From IMG/VR virus record IMGVR_UViG_3300027805_000014, positions 1 to 60,199 of that record: a stretch of DNA of 60,199 bases; one strand, written 5' to 3'. Origin of the DNA: a virus. The position numbers and the translations under genes are program-made. The notes under the pieces are model-generated. The model saw only the letters and a list, made by a program, of their open reading frames with translations. It had not been told where the DNA came from and did no database searches. This document shows, piece after piece, positions 43,459-59,886 of this stretch (position 1 is its first letter; every line of letters begins with the position of its first letter).

Positions 43459-44289
43459 TTAGCTGTCTGCTGTTTGCATTTTGCCTATAGAATGAAGCAA
43501 CCAGCCTGCACCAGCGCCGTGTTTAAACCTGTGCGGTACTTTCCTGCATGACTGCAAAGTTGTCCACGGAATGCCTGTTGCTTCCTGCGCAGCTAACATA
43601 CTGTCAAATTTGTAAACTTGCCCGTTTGAATCTTTTAAAACAACACTTCTTTTTCTGGCAGACCGTTTAGCCTTAACTGACCATTGGCGCTCAACAGCAC
43701 TGGCCCGCAGAGCTTTAGTTGCTGTTAGCTGTTTTTTAATTTCTTCTTGCATTCTAAAACTGCCAACATCAGTGAATGAGAATGCTCGGCCTTTATGTTT
43801 TCCGCATGTAATTACGACTACCTCAGATGTTGACAGTCGTTTTTGCAAATTGCTTCTGCCTATTTTTTCACTAGAGCAAAAACGATAAAAGTCAGGATGG
43901 CAGTAGTATTTCCCATCAGTCATTTCAAAAATCGGTATAGCAAGTCTAATGGCTTTTCTTGCTGCCTCGTATTGCTTAGAGGTTAATGTCCGCTGGTGAT
44001 TGCGGCAAGATGTCATGAAGAAAGATAAAGCTAAGTTCATCGATCTCTTTGCTTTACCTTCAGTGCATCTTGCGAGCAGACGATGAGCTATGAAATGCTC
44101 ACGGGGTGTTAGCGCAACCAAGTTACGACTTGAATTACTTCCACCTAGAGATCTTGGAAGTATGTGGTGTTTTTCTATATGACCCTCAGGAGCATTATGC
44201 ATTCGATGAGTCATAAGAAGAACATACCAGCGAAGAAACTTATTTCGTTTGAGGCCCGGCGTTTTAAGCAGTCGGGCCTCAAGATGCAT
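43459..44289 (-). CDS. HNH homing endonuclease with NUMOD-type C-terminus (276 aa)
   Basis: I use the ATG at 44289; a TTG at 44301 is also in frame. HIEKHHILPRSLGGSNSSRN then LVALTPREHFIAHRLLARC is the HNH active site (about residues 38-75), as in free-standing homing endonucleases of T4-like phages. The C-terminal YKFDSMLAAQEATGIPWTTL plus a following SCRK resembles the NUMOD1/IENR DNA-binding motif. It stands alone between a 140 aa gene and the transglycosylase, with 168 bp of apparently non-coding sequence after it (43291-43458), where I see no other feature. Likely a mobile intruder. Confidence 0.85.
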   Translation of the reverse strand: MHLEARLLKTPGLKRNKFLRWYVLLMTHRMHNAPEGHIEKHHILPRSLGGSNSSRNLVALTPREHFIAHRLLARCTEGKAKRSMNLALSFFMTSCRNHQRTLTSKQYEAARKAIRLAIPIFEMTDGKYYCHPDFYRFCSSEKIGRSNLQKRLSTSEVVVITCGKHKGRAFSFTDVGSFRMQEEIKKQLTATKALRASAVERQWSVKAKRSARKRSVVLKDSNGQVYKFDSMLAAQEATGIPWTTLQSCRKVPHRFKHGAGAGWLLHSIGKMQTADS

Positions 44290-44307
44290 TACTGCATCCA
44301 AAATATG

Positions 44308-44832: not shown

Positions 44833-44873
44833 GTGGAGAAGAGAGGTTACTGCAGGAAGATGTTGCCGACTAC

Positions 44874-44881
44874 TATAAATA
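44874..44881 (+). promoter_or_regulatory. T4-type late promoter, perfect TATAAATA
   Basis: Exact TATAAATA, 26 nt before the ATG at 44908 of a lone plus-strand endonuclease gene inside the minus-strand replication block. Confidence 0.6.
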
Positions 44882-44907
44882 GCACAAAATATCTGGAAGT
44901 GTCTCCT

Positions 44908-45639
44908 ATGAAACTACGAAACACTCTTCTATCTTTGAATGTGTTTGATCATAACCGCATCAACGTGAACTCGCAACGCATAGTCAAGCGAAATCCAGAA
45001 GTGTTTCGCGCCCTGGAAGCAGAAACAGCATTCCTCGGTGACGCCTCTCTCAAAGAGAGGATATTTGCTGTATTTGCTGGAATAACGTCACGACCCATTT
45101 GCTCCTGTGGAAATAGGGTGTTGTTTGAAGAACGAGGAAAGCCGCGATACAGAAGCGCGTGCTCTGGAAAATGTGCCGCTCAAGTTAGATTGAAAACCCT
45201 TGGGCCCGAAGGTGTAGCAGAAGTTTCCGCTAAACGAAAATCTTCGATGCTGAAGATAGGTGCTGATGGCAAGACCACTTTCCAACGCATGTATGACAAA
45301 CAACACGAAACCAAGGTGAAGAAGGGGATTTTCGTTCCCAGGGACAAAATGACAGCAAAACAGAGGTATCATTCTGAATGCTGGCGCATCACTAGATCCA
45401 ATGATCTGTCAAAGTTACCTAACTTTCACCTGCGTGGAAAGAACGGCAACCCCGGTGCGTTTCAAATAGACCACAAGATCTCTATCAGTTATGGATTTCT
45501 ACACGGCATATCACCTAGCGTGATAGGGCATTTCTGCAACCTTGAAATGATACCGTGGGAAAGCAACGTCAAGAAGAACTATCGGTGCAGTATTTCACTC
45601 GAAGAACTTTCTGACAGAATATCAAAACGCCAAAGTTGA
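44908..45639 (+). CDS. Free-standing HNH homing endonuclease with zinc finger (243 aa)
   Basis: I start at the ATG at 44908 (MKLRNTLLSLNVFDHNRINV) because the late box at 44874 lies inside the longer open frame that begins at 44833. Residues about 65-100 hold a zinc-finger-like RPICSCGN ... SACSGKC. The C-terminal IDHKISISYGFLHGIS then VIGHFCNLEMIPWESNVKKN is an HNH-type core (D-H ... N ... N-x-x-K). The N-terminal part and zinc finger resemble those of the endonuclease at 49677. It runs against its neighbours and its 3' end overlaps the RNase H gene by 18 nt, typical of an inserted homing gene. Confidence 0.75.
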   Translation: MKLRNTLLSLNVFDHNRINVNSQRIVKRNPEVFRALEAETAFLGDASLKERIFAVFAGITSRPICSCGNRVLFEERGKPRYRSACSGKCAAQVRLKTLGPEGVAEVSAKRKSSMLKIGADGKTTFQRMYDKQHETKVKKGIFVPRDKMTAKQRYHSECWRITRSNDLSKLPNFHLRGKNGNPGAFQIDHKISISYGFLHGISPSVIGHFCNLEMIPWESNVKKNYRCSISLEELSDRISKRQS

Positions 45640-48720: not shown

Positions 48721-49680
48721 TTAGAACCTCAAGAGCTTATTGACCAGTGCTCGCTGCGGAGTAGGCACTTCCCAACCCATCGCCTCGAAGATACCATCGA
48801 GCTTTGCATCAATCATCTTCTGCTCAGTCAGCTTGGTGTCAACCGCGAAGTGCTCAGTAAACCAGCTCGGAAACTCATAGGCATCTGCCGGAAAGGCGAT
48901 GGACTTCAGACCATCAGGATTGCCCTTCAAGTAGAAGATGATGACCTTGTCTCCTGACTTCAGGAGCTTTGCGCCTTGCTCGTAAGTAGACACCAACCTG
49001 TTGTAGTTCATCGCTGCTCGAACATGCCCAGGTACATTCTGTGGACCATTGCCGGTGTTGAGCTTGCCTTGCGCAGGGTAACCAGCCCTCTGCCAAGCTG
49101 CATAGAAGGCATCAAGGTTGTTCACCTGCTTGGCAACACCCATCGTGAAAATGTCACCGTCCTTACCGAGCAGGTCCTTGCGCCGCCTATTAACGAACTC
49201 CTCAATTGTTGGGTAGTCCTTACCGTCCAAGAGAAGCCCCATTAGGTCCTTCAAGAACTGCTGGATGATCTTGGGAGTGTCAGCCTTCTTGATCTCAGAG
49301 CCCTGTGACTTGAGCTTGTCGACTGATGCACCTTCAAGGTCGACCACCTTTAGCACATATTTCTTTTTTGCTTGAAAGATGCCACGCTCTACAACTACCT
49401 CTCGCCCTGCCTTGATGAGGTTGTCGAAACCTGGTTGACAGTTGAACGACCGGCGCACGAACTCAGGAAAGCTGTCATTGGTCAGCCGTGCAGTCTCATC
49501 AGCAACAGCGACTGCCTCCTCCTTGTCGGAAGCATGCGTCTTAAAGTAACAGCTGTTGTGAACCAAGATACCATTTGCAAAAAAATACGGTGTTGTAGCA
49601 TCCTCCATAATGATATCGTAGACATACTCGTCGTTGAAGTCATCAAGCTGTTCTACATTTTTGACTTTTAGCCTTTTCAT
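48721..49680 (-). CDS. 43: DNA polymerase gp43, C-terminal half, with N-terminal IntC (319 aa)
   Basis: It starts at the ATG at 49680, overlapping the endonuclease stop (ATGA). Residues 1-42 are a C-terminal split intein (YVYDIIMEDATTPYFFANGI, then LVHN); the polymerase resumes at Ser43 with SCYFKT, the sequence that follows YGDTD in family B enzymes. The next 277 residues are palm and thumb (VERGIFQAKKKYVLKVVDLE is the KxY-type region) and end PTPQRALVNKLLRF, a possible clamp-binding tail. Alone it lacks motifs A, B and most of C and cannot be active; trans-splicing to the 51208-53463 product is required. 635 + 277 = 912 aa, against 898 for T4 gp43. Confidence 0.9.
   Translation of the reverse strand: MKRLKVKNVEQLDDFNDEYVYDIIMEDATTPYFFANGILVHNSCYFKTHASDKEEAVAVADETARLTNDSFPEFVRRSFNCQPGFDNLIKAGREVVVERGIFQAKKKYVLKVVDLEGASVDKLKSQGSEIKKADTPKIIQQFLKDLMGLLLDGKDYPTIEEFVNRRRKDLLGKDGDIFTMGVAKQVNNLDAFYAAWQRAGYPAQGKLNTGNGPQNVPGHVRAAMNYNRLVSTYEQGAKLLKSGDKVIIFYLKGNPDGLKSIAFPADAYEFPSWFTEHFAVDTKLTEQKMIDAKLDGIFEAMGWEVPTPQRALVNKLLRF
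49555..49680 (-). other. Split intein, C-terminal part (IntC, 42 aa)
   Basis: Codons 1-42 of the polymerase C-half. Block F (EYVYDIIMEDATTPYFFA) and block G (NGILVHN|S) are both present, with the terminal Asn, penultimate His and Ser as the +1 extein residue (codon at 49552-49554). No endonuclease domain is attached. Confidence 0.9.
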
Positions 49681-51218
49681 CTTAGGATCAACTTCAAGTT
49701 GCCACAATCAGAAATTCTATACCAGCCGGATGATAGCATATTGTCAGTTTCTGATTTACTTTCATCAAAATCTGAACCAAGAACGGTGGCAAGCCGGTGC
49801 TTCATGGTCTGGTAGCGCGTTAGCCGCTGTGAAGATTTGACCCACAGATAATTTGGTGCCGTTTGTGAAACGACGGAAAAACCAATCTGTTTATAGCCTG
49901 CGCCATTAGATATTCTCAAGTCAGCGAAGGATATTATGCTTCCTGGAGATGTTCTTCTAAAATGCGCAATTAGCCTAGAAAGACCACCGACCACCGCATC
50001 TTGCGCGGCGAACCTAATCAATTCAGTTTCCCTCTTTTTGTTGAACCTATTTTTACCAAAAACAGCCACCGCAACCACTTCACCGTCGTGCCGAAGTGCA
50101 GTGTACTTAGCTCCTGCCGCGAACCCTGAAAGATGAGTTCTTTCTAGGAAACTTCTTGCTTCAGTTGAATCTATAGTGACTACCTCACACTGCCGGGCAT
50201 GGATCTTCCGTAGCAGCTTTAGTTTTGCACGAATAATGTTAAAAACAATTTCAGGCTTTTCATTTATTTCAAAATCCCAAAAGTGTAAAAGTTGAATACC
50301 CTGTTGAGCAGCAAGTTTTGTCTTATCTAACAAAGAATGCTTTGCTCTAAAGTCATTGTGCCAATATTGTCCATTTACCTCTATGGCAATTTTATAATCT
50401 GGCAGCACAAAGTCCAGCTCTAAGGGTGAAATCACACGCCTACAATTTTCCCTAAATGGGATACCAAGCTGCTTCAAAAAGTCAGATATCACGCTCTGCG
50501 GTCTTGATCTTGGGGCGCACGTTGGACACACAGGAAGCTGCCCCTTTATCAGACGCTGCTCAAAACGCGTGCCACATTTGGGGTGCTGCCAGCCGTAAAA
50601 GTGACTCATCCCCTTCCACACTGGGGCTTCAGCAATTAAGCAGCCTGTAGCGTTAGCAATCACCTGCAACCGCCTATAAAATCCGTCACCAGAAAAAGAC
50701 TGCGATCTAGCTTCAGCCGCAATCTTTTTCACATATGCAGTGTGGAGCGGGTCTATTGAATATTTGGATTTTCTCGTCTGTTTTATTCTATCTGCAATTA
50801 CTTGAACCTGTGCGGGATTTTCCGCACCGTACCGTGTAAGCATCGTTTTCTTTTTCTGTTTTTGCACATCAGGAACAGCCATATTATGGCTGACACCATA
50901 TTTTTTCTGTAAGGTTTTTGCAGATTTTTGGTGCGTTTCTTTACTTGATAATGTGCATTTGGGGGAGCAAAAAGCTGCAAATTTTCGCTTCTTGAGACTA
51001 GGTGAGGTGAATTTCCCACAATTCAAACAGATGGGCCTTTCTGATACATTTAAAAGTACAGCTAAGAATTTTTCATCTGTGGTTTTAAAATCTCCCAGCT
51101 CTTGGTTTTTAAGAGACTTTTTGAAGCTTCTAACCTGTGCATTGGCAAATGGAACTTTTGCTGTACTTGGGACCTTATCAAGTAGAACCATTAGCTTATC
51201 GTGCAGTTCAGATATCAT
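49677..51218 (-). CDS. Vsr/EDxHD-type homing endonuclease inserted in the fractured polymerase gene (513 aa)
   Basis: Residues about 60-90 hold a zinc-finger-like RPICLNCGK ... FCSPKC; residues 95-160 contain repeated helical DNA-binding motifs (KKYGVSHNMAVPDVQKQKKK, then TRYGAENPAQV). A CxxC ... CPTC pair lies near 220-240. The nuclease core at about 265-292, ELDFVLP and AIEVNGQYWHND, is that of very-short-patch-repair-like endonucleases, including the split-intein-associated family. The C-terminal domain (LERTHLSGFAAGAKYTALRH, FGKNRFNKKRETELIRFA) is common in phage homing enzymes. It overlaps polN by 11 nt and polC by 4 nt. It probably cuts intein-free gp43 genes and so spreads the whole insert. 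Confidence 0.88.
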   Translation of the reverse strand: MISELHDKLMVLLDKVPSTAKVPFANAQVRSFKKSLKNQELGDFKTTDEKFLAVLLNVSERPICLNCGKFTSPSLKKRKFAAFCSPKCTLSSKETHQKSAKTLQKKYGVSHNMAVPDVQKQKKKTMLTRYGAENPAQVQVIADRIKQTRKSKYSIDPLHTAYVKKIAAEARSQSFSGDGFYRRLQVIANATGCLIAEAPVWKGMSHFYGWQHPKCGTRFEQRLIKGQLPVCPTCAPRSRPQSVISDFLKQLGIPFRENCRRVISPLELDFVLPDYKIAIEVNGQYWHNDFRAKHSLLDKTKLAAQQGIQLLHFWDFEINEKPEIVFNIIRAKLKLLRKIHARQCEVVTIDSTEARSFLERTHLSGFAAGAKYTALRHDGEVVAVAVFGKNRFNKKRETELIRFAAQDAVVGGLSRLIAHFRRTSPGSIISFADLRISNGAGYKQIGFSVVSQTAPNYLWVKSSQRLTRYQTMKHRLATVLGSDFDESKSETDNMLSSGWYRISDCGNLKLILR

Positions 51219-53463
51219 TTTCTAAACAAATAAAATCATCAGAGGAAAGAATATCGGATGCTTTTACCTCAATCAATTCATCATTTCGTCTAACCATAAT
51301 GCTGTGATCTCCAGTAACTATCACTTCTTTGCCATCTTCGAGCGTTATCTTCCACTTCGGCTTGCTCACGCGGTGTCGATAAACTGCGCGTACAGGTTTA
51401 TGTTTGACACCATTTGTCGTAAAGCACGGGCTTGTTAGATTTTCAGATGTCGCAAACTGCTTATCACCACTTTCCCACTTCAACGGCAGCAGATTGAACA
51501 ACTCCTCTATGGTTGTATCTCCCGCCGATGAACGAACCATCGTCGTTCCATCAACGCTGTCAGTATCACCGTAGATGATGGTGCTTCCACCAGCAATGTA
51601 AACGTGAGCTGGCTTTCCATCTTCATCAACTGATGTCTGCTTCTGCAGCTTCATCTCAACATCAGGCTCAAGCAGCGAGTGAATGGTCTCCATCATGTGG
51701 GTCGTAATCTGGCGTCCGCATGCAGTTACAGATGCGCCCATCTCCTTTCGCCCAAACCTAAAGGCTGCGTTCAACAAAGCCCCGTAGGTACTGTTGAGCT
51801 GAATTTTTTTAGTGAGCTGTAGCAGGTCATAGTGCTCAGCTTGCCTCTCATATTCCGCCTTCTTGACTGGATCTTTCTCTTCCTTCGCAAGCTTGGTGTA
51901 CTTCTTCTTTTCAGCCTGGAGGCGCTTACGCTCTGCAAACCAGAATGTTAGCGTGTCTGCAACAAGACCCTGTCCAGAGCTTTGGTCAAAGACCGAGCCG
52001 TACGCTGATATAGCCCACTTCTTCTCTTTCAGTAAATGCCGCCACTGACTACCAGTAGCTTCAAAGATCTCACCGTCGTCGAACTTCAAGTAGTGCATCT
52101 GATCATCACCGCTGACCATGATGCCTCGCCAATCAGTCTCACCTTCCACGAACTGACCAATGAATTTCTCGGGAGAGATGTTGAGGGCACGAATAACAGA
52201 TGGGTACAGCGAGTTGATGTCAACCGAACCAATCCACTCGTGCATTCCGATGTGGGGATTAAGCACAAGCGCGCCCTCTACCTTCTCACCGTCAGTCATC
52301 ATCCGCTTGTCAGGGACGATGAGATTGTGGACGTTGTGGGCTCGGTTGGCGATACCTGTCTCGACGTAGCGCACCGTACCGAGGATGTTCTCGAAGAGAC
52401 AGGTATTCTCGTGCGCCATCTGGTTGACCAGCTGGATGAACTTGAACTTGGTATCTAGATCTACTAGACCCCCAACGTCCCGGAAATTATAGGCCACAAA
52501 TCGAGGGAAGTCATTCTTGTACAGCTGTTCAAGAGTGCCTTCGTAGTGGAGCTTCGCTAGCCCAATCTCCTCCTGTAGGATGTTGCCAAGTGAGTAGGAG
52601 GTCCGTCCTTCAAAGGTAAACTTCTTGAAAAGATCTAGATAGTCCAGATGAGTTCGACCGCTTAGCGTATACACCATTTCCTGAGAGCCAAAACGTTCAA
52701 CAAATCGTTGACGTGGCCCTGGGCATCCAATGAAGCACATCTTCTTAAGAAGGTGCTGTGCCTGCAGCTCAAGCCGGCGCACGATGTACGGAATATCGAA
52801 GAACTCTGAGTTCCACCCGCTGATGATGTCAGCGTCCTGGATGTCATCAAGCATGCACATCAGGAGCTCTGTCTCGTGACGACAGATCTTGATGATCGGT
52901 TTGTCACCCTCTCGAAGCTCGCCCTTTACAACGAGCGCTTGGAACTCAGCTTCAATGTCCTCAACGGTGCCGTTCCAAATGGTGCCATCTTCCTGAATTG
53001 GCGGAAGTACATAGGTCTTGTACTGACGTGTCCAGGACTGCCAGACAGTAACGGCGTTGATGCGGGCATAGGGGTTTGACGGACCAGCGAAGCCGATCTT
53101 CGAGGAGTAGTCCACCTCGATGTCGAGGAACGCGTAGTTGACTACCGGTGTGGGTAGGTCGTGGTACTCATTCATCAGCACCTTGAAGAGCGGTGGAATG
53201 TCGCTCTCGTACTTCACCGGGCACTGGCGCGCGCCCTGTTTGAACTCATCTTCCGTATCGAAAACCAGTTTTTCTAGCGCTCTCCCGTCAAGACCCTTGT
53301 ATGTCCCGGTCTCTGAAGGAACATAGAAATAATGCGGGGCTTTGAAGGTTCGACGCTTTCGTCCCTCCTCAGTACGTTCCCAGACAACAACAGCGTCATT
53401 GTCCCAGTCTCGGATAGCGCCAACGTAGTTAGGTTTAGTCATTCGCCAGTTGATCAACTTCAC
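51208..53463 (-). CDS. 43: DNA polymerase gp43, N-terminal half, with C-terminal IntN (751 aa)
   Basis: Family B polymerase. 3'-5' exonuclease motifs FLDIEVDY (about residue 112), ISGWNSEFFDIPYI and AYNFRDVGGLVDLD; polymerase motif A SVDINSLYPSVIRA (about 411), motif B KIQLNSTYGALLNAAFRFG (about 550), and motif C IIYGDTD ending at residue 635. Residues 636-751 are the N-terminal half of a split intein. The gene therefore ends within the catalytic Asp motif and needs the downstream half. It follows the DsbA-like gene with a 29 nt overlap. It is the phage replicase; in T4 this is the gp43 holoenzyme core. Confidence 0.93.
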   Translation of the reverse strand: MKLINWRMTKPNYVGAIRDWDNDAVVVWERTEEGRKRRTFKAPHYFYVPSETGTYKGLDGRALEKLVFDTEDEFKQGARQCPVKYESDIPPLFKVLMNEYHDLPTPVVNYAFLDIEVDYSSKIGFAGPSNPYARINAVTVWQSWTRQYKTYVLPPIQEDGTIWNGTVEDIEAEFQALVVKGELREGDKPIIKICRHETELLMCMLDDIQDADIISGWNSEFFDIPYIVRRLELQAQHLLKKMCFIGCPGPRQRFVERFGSQEMVYTLSGRTHLDYLDLFKKFTFEGRTSYSLGNILQEEIGLAKLHYEGTLEQLYKNDFPRFVAYNFRDVGGLVDLDTKFKFIQLVNQMAHENTCLFENILGTVRYVETGIANRAHNVHNLIVPDKRMMTDGEKVEGALVLNPHIGMHEWIGSVDINSLYPSVIRALNISPEKFIGQFVEGETDWRGIMVSGDDQMHYLKFDDGEIFEATGSQWRHLLKEKKWAISAYGSVFDQSSGQGLVADTLTFWFAERKRLQAEKKKYTKLAKEEKDPVKKAEYERQAEHYDLLQLTKKIQLNSTYGALLNAAFRFGRKEMGASVTACGRQITTHMMETIHSLLEPDVEMKLQKQTSVDEDGKPAHVYIAGGSTIIYGDTDSVDGTTMVRSSAGDTTIEELFNLLPLKWESGDKQFATSENLTSPCFTTNGVKHKPVRAVYRHRVSKPKWKITLEDGKEVIVTGDHSIMVRRNDELIEVKASDILSSDDFICLENDI
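51211..51558 (-). other. Split intein, N-terminal part (IntN, 116 aa)
   Basis: Starts at Ser636 of the N-half with block A (SVDGTTMVRSSAGDTTIEEL) and contains block B (VIVTGDHSIMVRR, with the conserved T-x-x-H). It ends at the stop after ENDI. The first residue is Ser instead of the more common Cys. With IntC the mini-intein totals 158 aa. Confidence 0.9.
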
Positions 53464-58645: not shown

Positions 58646-59299
58646 ATGAAGCTACTTGAGATAAAACAGAAGTCAGTTGCTGACCTGAAGATAGAGTACA
58701 CAGGTGGTGGCTTCTACTGCTACAACAACAAGCTGACATCCCTTGAAGGTGCACCATCCCATGTAGGTGGTAGCTTCTTCTGCGACCACAACCAGCTGAC
58801 ATCCCTTGAAGGTGCCCCATCCCATGTAGGTGGTGCCTTTGCCTGCTACAACAACAAGCTGACATCCCTTGAAGGTGCACCATCCCATGTAGGTGGTGAC
58901 TTTTCCTGCTACCACAACAAGCTGACATCCCTTGAAGGTGCACCATCCCATGTAGGTGGTGACTTCTTCTGCAGTCTCAACAAGCTGACATCCCTTGAGG
59001 GTGCACCGCCCCATGTAGGTGGTGCTTTCTACTGCAGCAGCAATAAGCTGACATCCCTCAAGAACATCCACAAGATCATCAGAGAGATAAATGGTGTATT
59101 TTACTGTTACCACAACCCAATCAAGGAAGGTCTGCTGTATATCCTGCTTGTAAAGGGGGTAACGTTGGTAGATACCCCATTCCCAGACGCAGATGAGATC
59201 ATCAACGAGTACCTTGAAACAAATCCATCTGGTTCAATTAGAGCAGCGCTGGACGTGCAGCAGCTGCTCTCAGACGCGGATGTGGAGTATCCAAGATGA
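58646..59299 (+). CDS. LRR-like repeat protein, 6 units (217 aa)
   Basis: First gene of the right-hand array. It begins MKLLEIKQKSVADLKIEYTG, has six 21-residue units, the cap KNIHKIIREING and the common C-terminus ending ADVEYPR. The variable core reads FYCYNNK, FFCDHNQ, FACYNNK, FSCYHNK, FFCSLNK and FYCSSNK in order. It is exactly two units longer than the 175 aa copy and one longer than the 196 aa copy, so the family evolves by gain and loss of whole units. A late box precedes it. The stop overlaps the next start. Confidence 0.85.
   Translation: MKLLEIKQKSVADLKIEYTGGGFYCYNNKLTSLEGAPSHVGGSFFCDHNQLTSLEGAPSHVGGAFACYNNKLTSLEGAPSHVGGDFSCYHNKLTSLEGAPSHVGGDFFCSLNKLTSLEGAPPHVGGAFYCSSNKLTSLKNIHKIIREINGVFYCYHNPIKEGLLYILLVKGVTLVDTPFPDADEIINEYLETNPSGSIRAALDVQQLLSDADVEYPR
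58700..59070 (+). repeat. 63-bp tandem repeats coding six LRR-like units
   Basis: Six direct repeats of 63 bp. The segment coding LTSLEGAPSHVGG is nearly identical in all, while the 8-codon core varies. Confidence 0.85.
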
Positions 59300-59886
59300 A
59301 GCTACTTGAGATAACCCAGAGATCAGTTACCGACCTGAAGATCAAGTACACAGGTGGTGACTTCTTCTGCAGTAACAACCAGTTGGCATCCCTTGAAGGA
59401 GCACCATCCCATGTAGGTGGTGACTTCTTCTGCAGTAACAACCAGTTGACATCTCTTAAAGGTGCACCGTCCCATGTAGGTGGTCGCTTCTACTGCAATA
59501 ACAACAAGCTGACATCCCTTGAAGGTACCCCATCCCGTGTAGGTGGTGACTTTACCTGCTACAACAACCAGCTGGCATCCCTTGAAGGAGCACCATCCCA
59601 TGTAGGCGGCGGCTTCTTCTGCTACAGCAACCAGCTGACATCGCTCAAGAACATCCACAAGATCATCAAGGAGATAAATGGTGTGTTTTGTTGCCACAAC
59701 AACCCAATCAAGGAAGGTCTGCTGCACATCCTGCTGATCAAGGGGGTAACAGAAGTAGGTACACCTTGCCCAAAAGCAGACATGATAATCAACGAGTACC
59801 TTAAGACAAACCCATCTGGCTCAATTAGAGCAGCTTTAGATGTGCAGCAGCTGTTATCAGATGCAGACGTGGAGTATCCAAGATGA
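59296..59886 (+). CDS. LRR-like repeat protein, 5 units (196 aa)
   Basis: Begins MKLLEITQRSVTDLKIKYTG. The five units have cores FFCSNNQ, FFCSNNQ, FYCNNNK, FTCYNNQ and FFCYSNQ; the first two are identical, a sign of recent unit duplication. Cap and C-terminus follow the family, with changes such as LHILLIKGVTEVGTPCPKAD. It is joined to both neighbours by ATGA overlaps. Confidence 0.85.
   Translation: MKLLEITQRSVTDLKIKYTGGDFFCSNNQLASLEGAPSHVGGDFFCSNNQLTSLKGAPSHVGGRFYCNNNKLTSLEGTPSRVGGDFTCYNNQLASLEGAPSHVGGGFFCYSNQLTSLKNIHKIIKEINGVFCCHNNPIKEGLLHILLIKGVTEVGTPCPKADMIINEYLKTNPSGSIRAALDVQQLLSDADVEYPR
59350..59650 (+). repeat. 63-bp tandem repeats coding five LRR-like units
   Basis: Five 63 bp direct repeats, same unit as in the neighbouring genes. 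The first two copies code the same variable core. Confidence 0.85.

What the first reader, a model, noticed from the sequence alone, without database searches (positions are those of the whole stretch)
48721..53463. Fractured DNA polymerase gene: split intein with a nested homing endonuclease
gp43 is encoded by two separate genes. The first ends in motif C at YGDTD followed by a 116 aa intein N-part. The second starts with a 42 aa intein C-part ending in HN, then SCYFKT. Between them is a 513 aa Vsr/EDxHD-type endonuclease gene. Removing the intein parts gives 635 + 277 = 912 aa, close to T4 gp43 as I recall it (898 aa). The layout matches the published 'fractured gene' concept from environmental phage sequences (split intein plus free-standing endonuclease). 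All three genes overlap, so none can be lost cleanly. A replicase depending on trans-splicing is unusual and could be a new, fast split-intein pair.
Basis: partly seen in the sequence, partly recalled or inferred. Interest (0 to 1): 0.93.

Follow-up and report, generated by a model that had tools for sequence, protein, structure and literature searches.

The report
Phage replicase split by an intein
In this environmental phage the DNA-copying enzyme is encoded in two pieces that carry the two halves of a self-removing protein splicer, with a DNA-cutting 'homing' gene wedged between them; the arrangement is real, but it is a new example of a design already known from many phages, in one of which the joining reaction has been shown in the test tube.

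Summary
On the minus strand, polB-N (635 aa extein + 116 aa IntN), a 513 aa endonuclease and polB-C (42 aa IntC + 277 aa extein) lie in tandem, overlapping by 11 and 4 nt. Every residue needed for protein splicing is present. The break lies in motif C (YGDTD|S). The closest syntenic relative found (L010) has an uninterrupted gene at exactly that point, and another relative (L008) carries a contiguous mini-intein there. The best reading is a trans-splicing split intein invaded by an EDxHD (Vsr-like) homing endonuclease. It is not new in kind. The same site, split intein and Vsr-type gene occur in Pseudomonas MIJ3/PA5oct, Aeromonas Aes123/Aes508, Campylobacter CP21, Tenacibaculum PTm1, Vibrio VPALA and Lak phages. 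Aes123 trans-splicing has been measured (t1/2 5 s at 37 C). I counted 38 other distinct loci with an ORF-sized gap between the halves and 14 with a short gap. Two less expected points: the endonuclease carries a C-terminal Mom-like (DNA-modification, GNAT) domain, and its closest relative is a free-standing gene beside a uvsX/recA-like gene, so endonuclease and intein appear to be independent modules. Splicing and homing here are inferred, not shown.

The parts
51559..53463 (-). N-extein of family B (gp43-type) DNA polymerase, exonuclease domain to motif C ...YGDTD; likely true start is the ATG at 53442
51211..51558 (-). IntN, 116 aa, Ser1 (codon 51556-51558), TxxH block B, NX-motif histidine (YRH); stop codon 51208-51210
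49677..51218 (-). 513 aa EDxHD/Vsr-like homing-type endonuclease with zinc-ribbon-like Cys pairs, helical repeat region (DUF7487), nuclease domain and C-terminal Mom-like domain
50229..50501 (-). nuclease domain of the endonuclease (about residues 240-330), motif ELDF...AIEVNGQYWHND
   Evidence: I-Bth0305I, 3r3p
49680..50216 (-). Mom-like GNAT domain of the endonuclease (about residues 335-513), with H362, E399, R402, D433, Y442 conserved
   Evidence: (8bv8)
49555..49680 (-). IntC, 42 aa from the ATG at 49680, ending ILVHN (Asn codon 49555-49557)
48721..49554 (-). C-extein of the polymerase, 277 aa, beginning Ser+1 (SCYFKT), and stop codon

Best explanation
The phage's family B replicase is made as two polypeptides. 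IntN and IntC bind, fold into one class 1 Ser1/Ser+1 intein and trans-splice, joining ...YGDTD to SCYFKT and giving one 905-912 aa gp43-type polymerase with an intact motif C. The gene between the halves encodes an EDxHD (Vsr-like) homing endonuclease that cuts intein-less polymerase alleles near this conserved codon run during mixed infection, so that repair copies the intein-plus-endonuclease cassette. The most likely history: a mini-intein sat at this site, its linker was broken by insertion of an independent free-standing endonuclease gene, and the short overlaps keep the three genes translationally coupled. Shown: gene anatomy, conserved splice residues, empty and contiguous-intein relatives, the same architecture elsewhere. 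Inferred: splicing, DNA cleavage, homing, coupling, order of events.
For: Exteins joined at DTD|S align without gap or extra residue to uninterrupted polymerases (L010 79%/69%, L007 61%/60%, L009, L015-L017). Eight PolB inteins align with S1, NX-His62, T82xxH85, D138, H157, N158 and Ser+1 invariant. Ser1 is found in 64 of 65 related inteins. The best solved relative of a 158-residue N+C query is 9hth (E 2.3e-10), the Aes123 PolB1 intein, whose natural split form splices with t1/2 5.0 s at 37 C. Aes123 and Aes508 have IntN, a VSR-type gene and IntC with similar short overlaps. In the endonuclease E280, N282, G283 and H287 are invariant and E267 and D269 at least 90% conserved in 45 rows, and its model matches the I-Bth0305I catalytic domain. 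Polymerase tree: the window is sister to intein-free L010 (100/94) in a 16-row clade with 15 intein-free rows. Third-position GC: exteins 61-63%, IntN/endonuclease/IntC 39-45%.
Against: No protein or RNA data. The endonuclease's target site and activity are unknown, and its Mom-like domain leaves room for a restriction-modification role. The low third-position GC equals the genome's ordinary value, so composition alone does not prove recent arrival. The closest inteins (L143, L151, L008) belong to related polymerases, so old presence with many losses is not excluded.
Confidence: 0.92

Rival explanations
1. The two polymerase parts work as a non-covalent heterodimer (as reported for gp43A/gp43B of Aeromonas phage 25) and the intein parts no longer splice.
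For: Split gp43 halves without an intein co-purify and are active in Aeromonas phage 25 (PMC2988022). Some relatives here have the gene split with no intein seen (L019, L022, L035).
Against: All splicing residues are intact on both sides. The break lies inside the catalytic motif C, not in a domain linker, and the exteins need exactly these residues removed to match relatives.
Confidence: 0.05
2. The middle gene is not a homing endonuclease but a fused restriction-modification enzyme (nuclease plus Mom) that happens to lie in the intein; the split intein itself stays as described.
For: Jumbo-phage Mom domains fused to nuclease domains were predicted to be R-M systems (PMC7824862). The C-terminal domain matches Mu Mom (8bv8, E 1.3e-5) and keeps H362, E399, R402, D433, Y442.
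Against: The nuclease is of the EDxHD homing type. Its relatives lie between PolB intein halves in at least four other loci (L002, L056, L176, L195) and otherwise often beside essential genes. Shorter Vsr-type genes without this domain occupy the same position in most other loci.
Confidence: 0.2
3. Assembly chimera or frameshift artefact.
For: A single metagenomic contig; no reads available.
Against: Three intact ORFs in tandem with coding overlaps, and the same layout in many independent contigs and in isolates, unlike a frameshift.
Confidence: 0.01

Closest known systems
Split PolB intein plus endonuclease of Pseudomonas phage MIJ3/PA5oct (PMC6892783)
   Same: Same polymerase family, same DTD|S site, block A SVDGSTIL vs SVDGTTMV, endonuclease of the same subfamily between the halves (34% identity over residues 266-508), 8 nt overlap at the first junction
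   Different: IntN 42% identical, N-extein about 34% identical; MIJ3 IntC has a longer N-terminal extension; MIJ3 authors called the gene HNH-type
Aes123 PolB1 split intein (Aeromonas phages Aes123, Aes508; structure 9HTH)
   Same: Same site, Ser1/Ser+1, IntN 120 and IntC 39 aa, Vsr-type gene between, overlaps at both ends; trans-splicing shown
   Different: 33% intein identity over the joined parts; shorter endonuclease without a Mom-like domain; the Aeromonas gene is also split once more upstream (gp43A)
Contiguous PolB mini-inteins (L008 in this polymerase clade; Salicola phage SCTP-2)
   Same: L008: same DTD|S site, 43% IntN and 59% IntC identity
   Different: One ORF, no endonuclease; SCTP-2 sits two residues earlier (GD|TDS)
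'Fractured genes' from environmental data (Dassa et al. 2009; known to me from memory and from papers citing it, full text not held)
   Same: Conserved enzyme broken by a split intein with a free-standing Vsr-related endonuclease gene between
   Different: I could not read the paper, so I cannot say whether this polymerase site was in its list
I-Bth0305I, EDxHD homing endonuclease (3r3p)
   Same: Nuclease fold and catalytic motif
   Different: The host gene here is a split-intein polymerase; extra C-terminal Mom-like domain

Membership tests
Class 1 split intein, Ser1/Ser+1 (PolB DTD|S allele) | Ser1, block B TxxH, NX-motif His after Arg/Lys, block F Asp, penultimate His, terminal Asn, Ser/Thr+1 | tested here: met
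   NX motif described in PMC10189870
Class 1 split intein, Ser1/Ser+1 (PolB DTD|S allele) | Split at the usual endonuclease site: IntN about 100-120 aa, IntC about 35-46 aa, on separate ORFs | tested here: met
   116 + 42 aa; published ranges
Class 1 split intein, Ser1/Ser+1 (PolB DTD|S allele) | Trans-splicing activity | not testable with these tools
   needs co-expression
Fractured gene arrangement | Conserved enzyme in two ORFs with intein halves and an endonuclease ORF between, same strand | tested here: met
Fractured gene arrangement | Intein-free homologues continuous across the break | tested here: met
   L010, L007, L009 and others
EDxHD (Vsr-like) homing endonuclease | Vsr-type nuclease domain with conserved E, D, H residues | tested here: met
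EDxHD (Vsr-like) homing endonuclease | Site-specific cleavage of the intein-less allele and homing | not testable with these tools
   no assay
gp43-type family B DNA polymerase | Exonuclease domain and polymerase motifs A (DINSLYPS), B and C (YGDTDS after splicing) | tested here: met
Mom family (DNA-modifying GNAT) | Mom-like fold with residues shared with Mu Mom | tested here: met
   (weak sequence score of 13-15 bits, supported by the fold match)
Mom family (DNA-modifying GNAT) | Adenine modification activity | not testable with these tools
   needs mass spectrometry of phage DNA or a recombinant assay

The most novel reading that the evidence does not exclude
The endonuclease inside the split intein is a self-protecting homing enzyme: its EDxHD domain cuts unmodified competitor DNA while its Mom-like domain chemically marks the phage's own DNA, so jumbo-phage 'Mom-nuclease R-M systems' would in fact be homing elements that moved repeatedly into split inteins and beside essential genes.
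Probability: 0.15. Interest if true: 0.6.

Novelty: new member of a known kind. Interest (0 to 1): 0.35.

Why it matters
It adds a well-documented case in a phage lineage where empty, contiguous-intein and split-with-endonuclease states of one polymerase site can be compared. That makes the proposed path from mini-intein to fractured gene testable, with a closely related syntenic intein-free allele (L010) as recipient. The Ser1/Ser+1 pair is a candidate for the small set of split inteins that do not depend on cysteine chemistry. If the Mom-like domain is active, it joins two ideas so far kept apart, homing and DNA modification.

Tried and rejected
Foreign origin from composition: intein and endonuclease differ from the exteins in third-position GC (39-45 vs 61-63%), but 39-45% is normal for this genome and it is the core replication genes that are high; kept as weak evidence only. 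Charge segregation between IntN and IntC as a mark of adaptation to splitting: no clear difference between split and contiguous inteins (p 0.015 for the first 60 residues only, uncorrected). Regulatory RNA or terminator between the genes: no Rfam match and no terminator-like site. Group I introns around 30 contigs with relatives of the endonuclease: none found. Intein-bearing PolB endonucleases of this subfamily as one clade: rejected, at least three label changes forced. The Dassa 2009 paper could not be opened. DNA-level relatives among isolates: none. The second structure prediction was not used, because the joined intein is not a sequence of the window and the half-proteins would add little.

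Full report
WHAT IS THERE. The three minus-strand genes are as described: polB-N 53463-51208, endonuclease 51218-49677, polB-C 49680-48721. polB-N carries the exonuclease and polymerase domains up to YGDTD and then 116 residues that match Pfam Intein_splicing (E 3.7e-10) and TIGR01445 intein_Nterm (1.7e-6). polB-C starts with 42 residues matching the C-terminal end of the intein profile and continues with the rest of the polymerase (phrog_262, 1.9e-36). The overlaps are 11 nt and 4 nt. The probable start of polB-N is the ATG at 53442, the position at which homologues start, so the spliced product is 905 aa (912 if the GTG is used).

IS IT MORE THAN CHANCE. Thirty-eight viral contigs encode relatives of the polymerase. 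In many of them N-extein residue 635 is followed directly, in frame, by C-extein residue 1. Boundaries checked in 25 intein-free rows all read DTD|S. The closest, L010 (79% and 69% identity), is syntenic downstream of the polymerase and has neither intein nor endonuclease. L008 has a single ORF with a mini-intein at the same site. At this locus the window therefore differs from its closest relative by one exact insertion.

SPLICING. In an alignment with seven other PolB inteins the window keeps every residue of class 1 splicing: Ser1, block B T82xxH85, block F D138, H157, N158, Ser+1, and the NX-motif histidine (H62, after Arg) described for Ser1 inteins (PMC10189870). The best solved relative of a 158-residue N+C query is 9HTH, the Aes123 PolB1 intein of Aeromonas phages. 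Its natural split form trans-splices with a half-life of 5.0 s at 37 C, although splicing efficiency is only about 30% because the N-precursor aggregates (PMC11923092). The break falls in catalytic motif C, so an unspliced enzyme is unlikely to work; that is inference. IntN has two cysteines and IntC none, neither at a splice junction.

THE MIDDLE GENE. It matches phrog_3339 homing endonuclease (2.6e-98) and Vsr (8e-6). Across 45 rows E280, N282, G283 and H287 are invariant, and E267 and D269 are at least 90% conserved. The predicted structure (mean pLDDT 86.6) matches two solved structures: phage Mu Mom (8bv8, E 1.3e-5) and the I-Bth0305I EDxHD catalytic domain (3r3p, 1.2e-4). A profile of the C-terminal third aligns to Mu Mom with H362, E399, R402, D433 and Y442 conserved in 96-100% of rows; the sequence score is weak (13-15 bits), so the claim rests on fold plus conservation. 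A 2021 survey of jumbo phages reported Mom domains fused to nucleases and proposed restriction-modification (PMC7824862). I find relatives of this gene between PolB intein halves in four further loci (L002, L056, L176, L195), free-standing beside capsid, topoisomerase-like and uvsX-like genes, and after a terminase-like gene ending in an intein N-part (L101). That fits homing better than a plain R-M role, without excluding it.

HISTORY. In the polymerase tree the window is sister to intein-free L010 (100/94) inside a 16-row clade with 15 intein-free rows. The rows were chosen by similarity to the window, so this is not a census. The closest inteins are L143 and L151 (split, with a shorter Vsr-type gene) and L008 (contiguous), all from the wider polymerase clade. 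Either gain from a related phage or old presence with losses is possible. The endonuclease's closest relative is a free-standing gene after a uvsX/recA-like gene (L045, 100/100), and PolB-intein endonucleases of this subfamily do not form one clade. Intein and endonuclease are therefore separable modules.

HOW COMMON. Among 65 distinct loci collected with the intein profile (IMG/VR, phage records and a few genomes; the window itself not counted): site DTD|S, 9 contiguous, 11 split with a short gap, 24 split with an ORF-sized gap; site GD|TDS two residues earlier, 4, 3 and 13; one unresolved, with an ORF-sized gap. CP21, counted under the second site, belongs to the first because its ORF is frameshifted. 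Most ORFs in the large gaps show the Vsr-type motif (E-x-N/Y-G-x-x-x-H). Overlapping or nearly touching genes at the junctions are common. Named examples: MIJ3/PA5oct, Aes123/Aes508/AS-gz, CP21/F379, PTm1, VPALA and Lak phages.

VERDICT. What remains open is whether this pair splices fast, whether the endonuclease homes, and whether its Mom-like domain modifies DNA.

Noticed in passing
49680-50216 (minus), and relatives in alignment A3: The homing-type endonuclease has a C-terminal Mom-like GNAT domain (best fold match phage Mu Mom) with strongly conserved putative active-site residues; published as a predicted R-M fusion in jumbo phages, here found inside split inteins.
   Followed up: partly
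L187 4300-5157: Between the PolB IntN and IntC halves lies a possible DNA methyltransferase ORF (FGGGG and DPPY motifs; only weak Pfam support, UPF0020 E 0.067) instead of an endonuclease.
   Followed up: partly
L019 7641-8408, L035 5277-5594, L022: In related phages the same polymerase gene is split just upstream of motif B with no intein seen; L019 has a GIY-YIG-like endonuclease ORF in the gap.
   Followed up: no
L032 407-835: An HNH-like ORF interrupts the exonuclease domain of the polymerase gene in this relative, again with no intein seen.
   Followed up: no
L101 3261-5644: A relative of this endonuclease follows a terminase-like gene that ends in an intein N-part, suggesting a fractured terminase with the same endonuclease subfamily.
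   Followed up: no
43459-44301 (minus) and 44833-45639 (plus): Two more free-standing endonuclease-like genes beside replication genes (first: phrog_655 homing endonuclease, 5e-30; second: phrog_5104, function unknown, HNH-like by eye).
   Followed up: partly
271-798, 58646-59299, 59296-59886: Leucine-rich-repeat-like paralogues (MKLLEIKQKSVADLKI...) near both ends of the contig, sharing exact stretches of 40 or more bases.
   Followed up: partly
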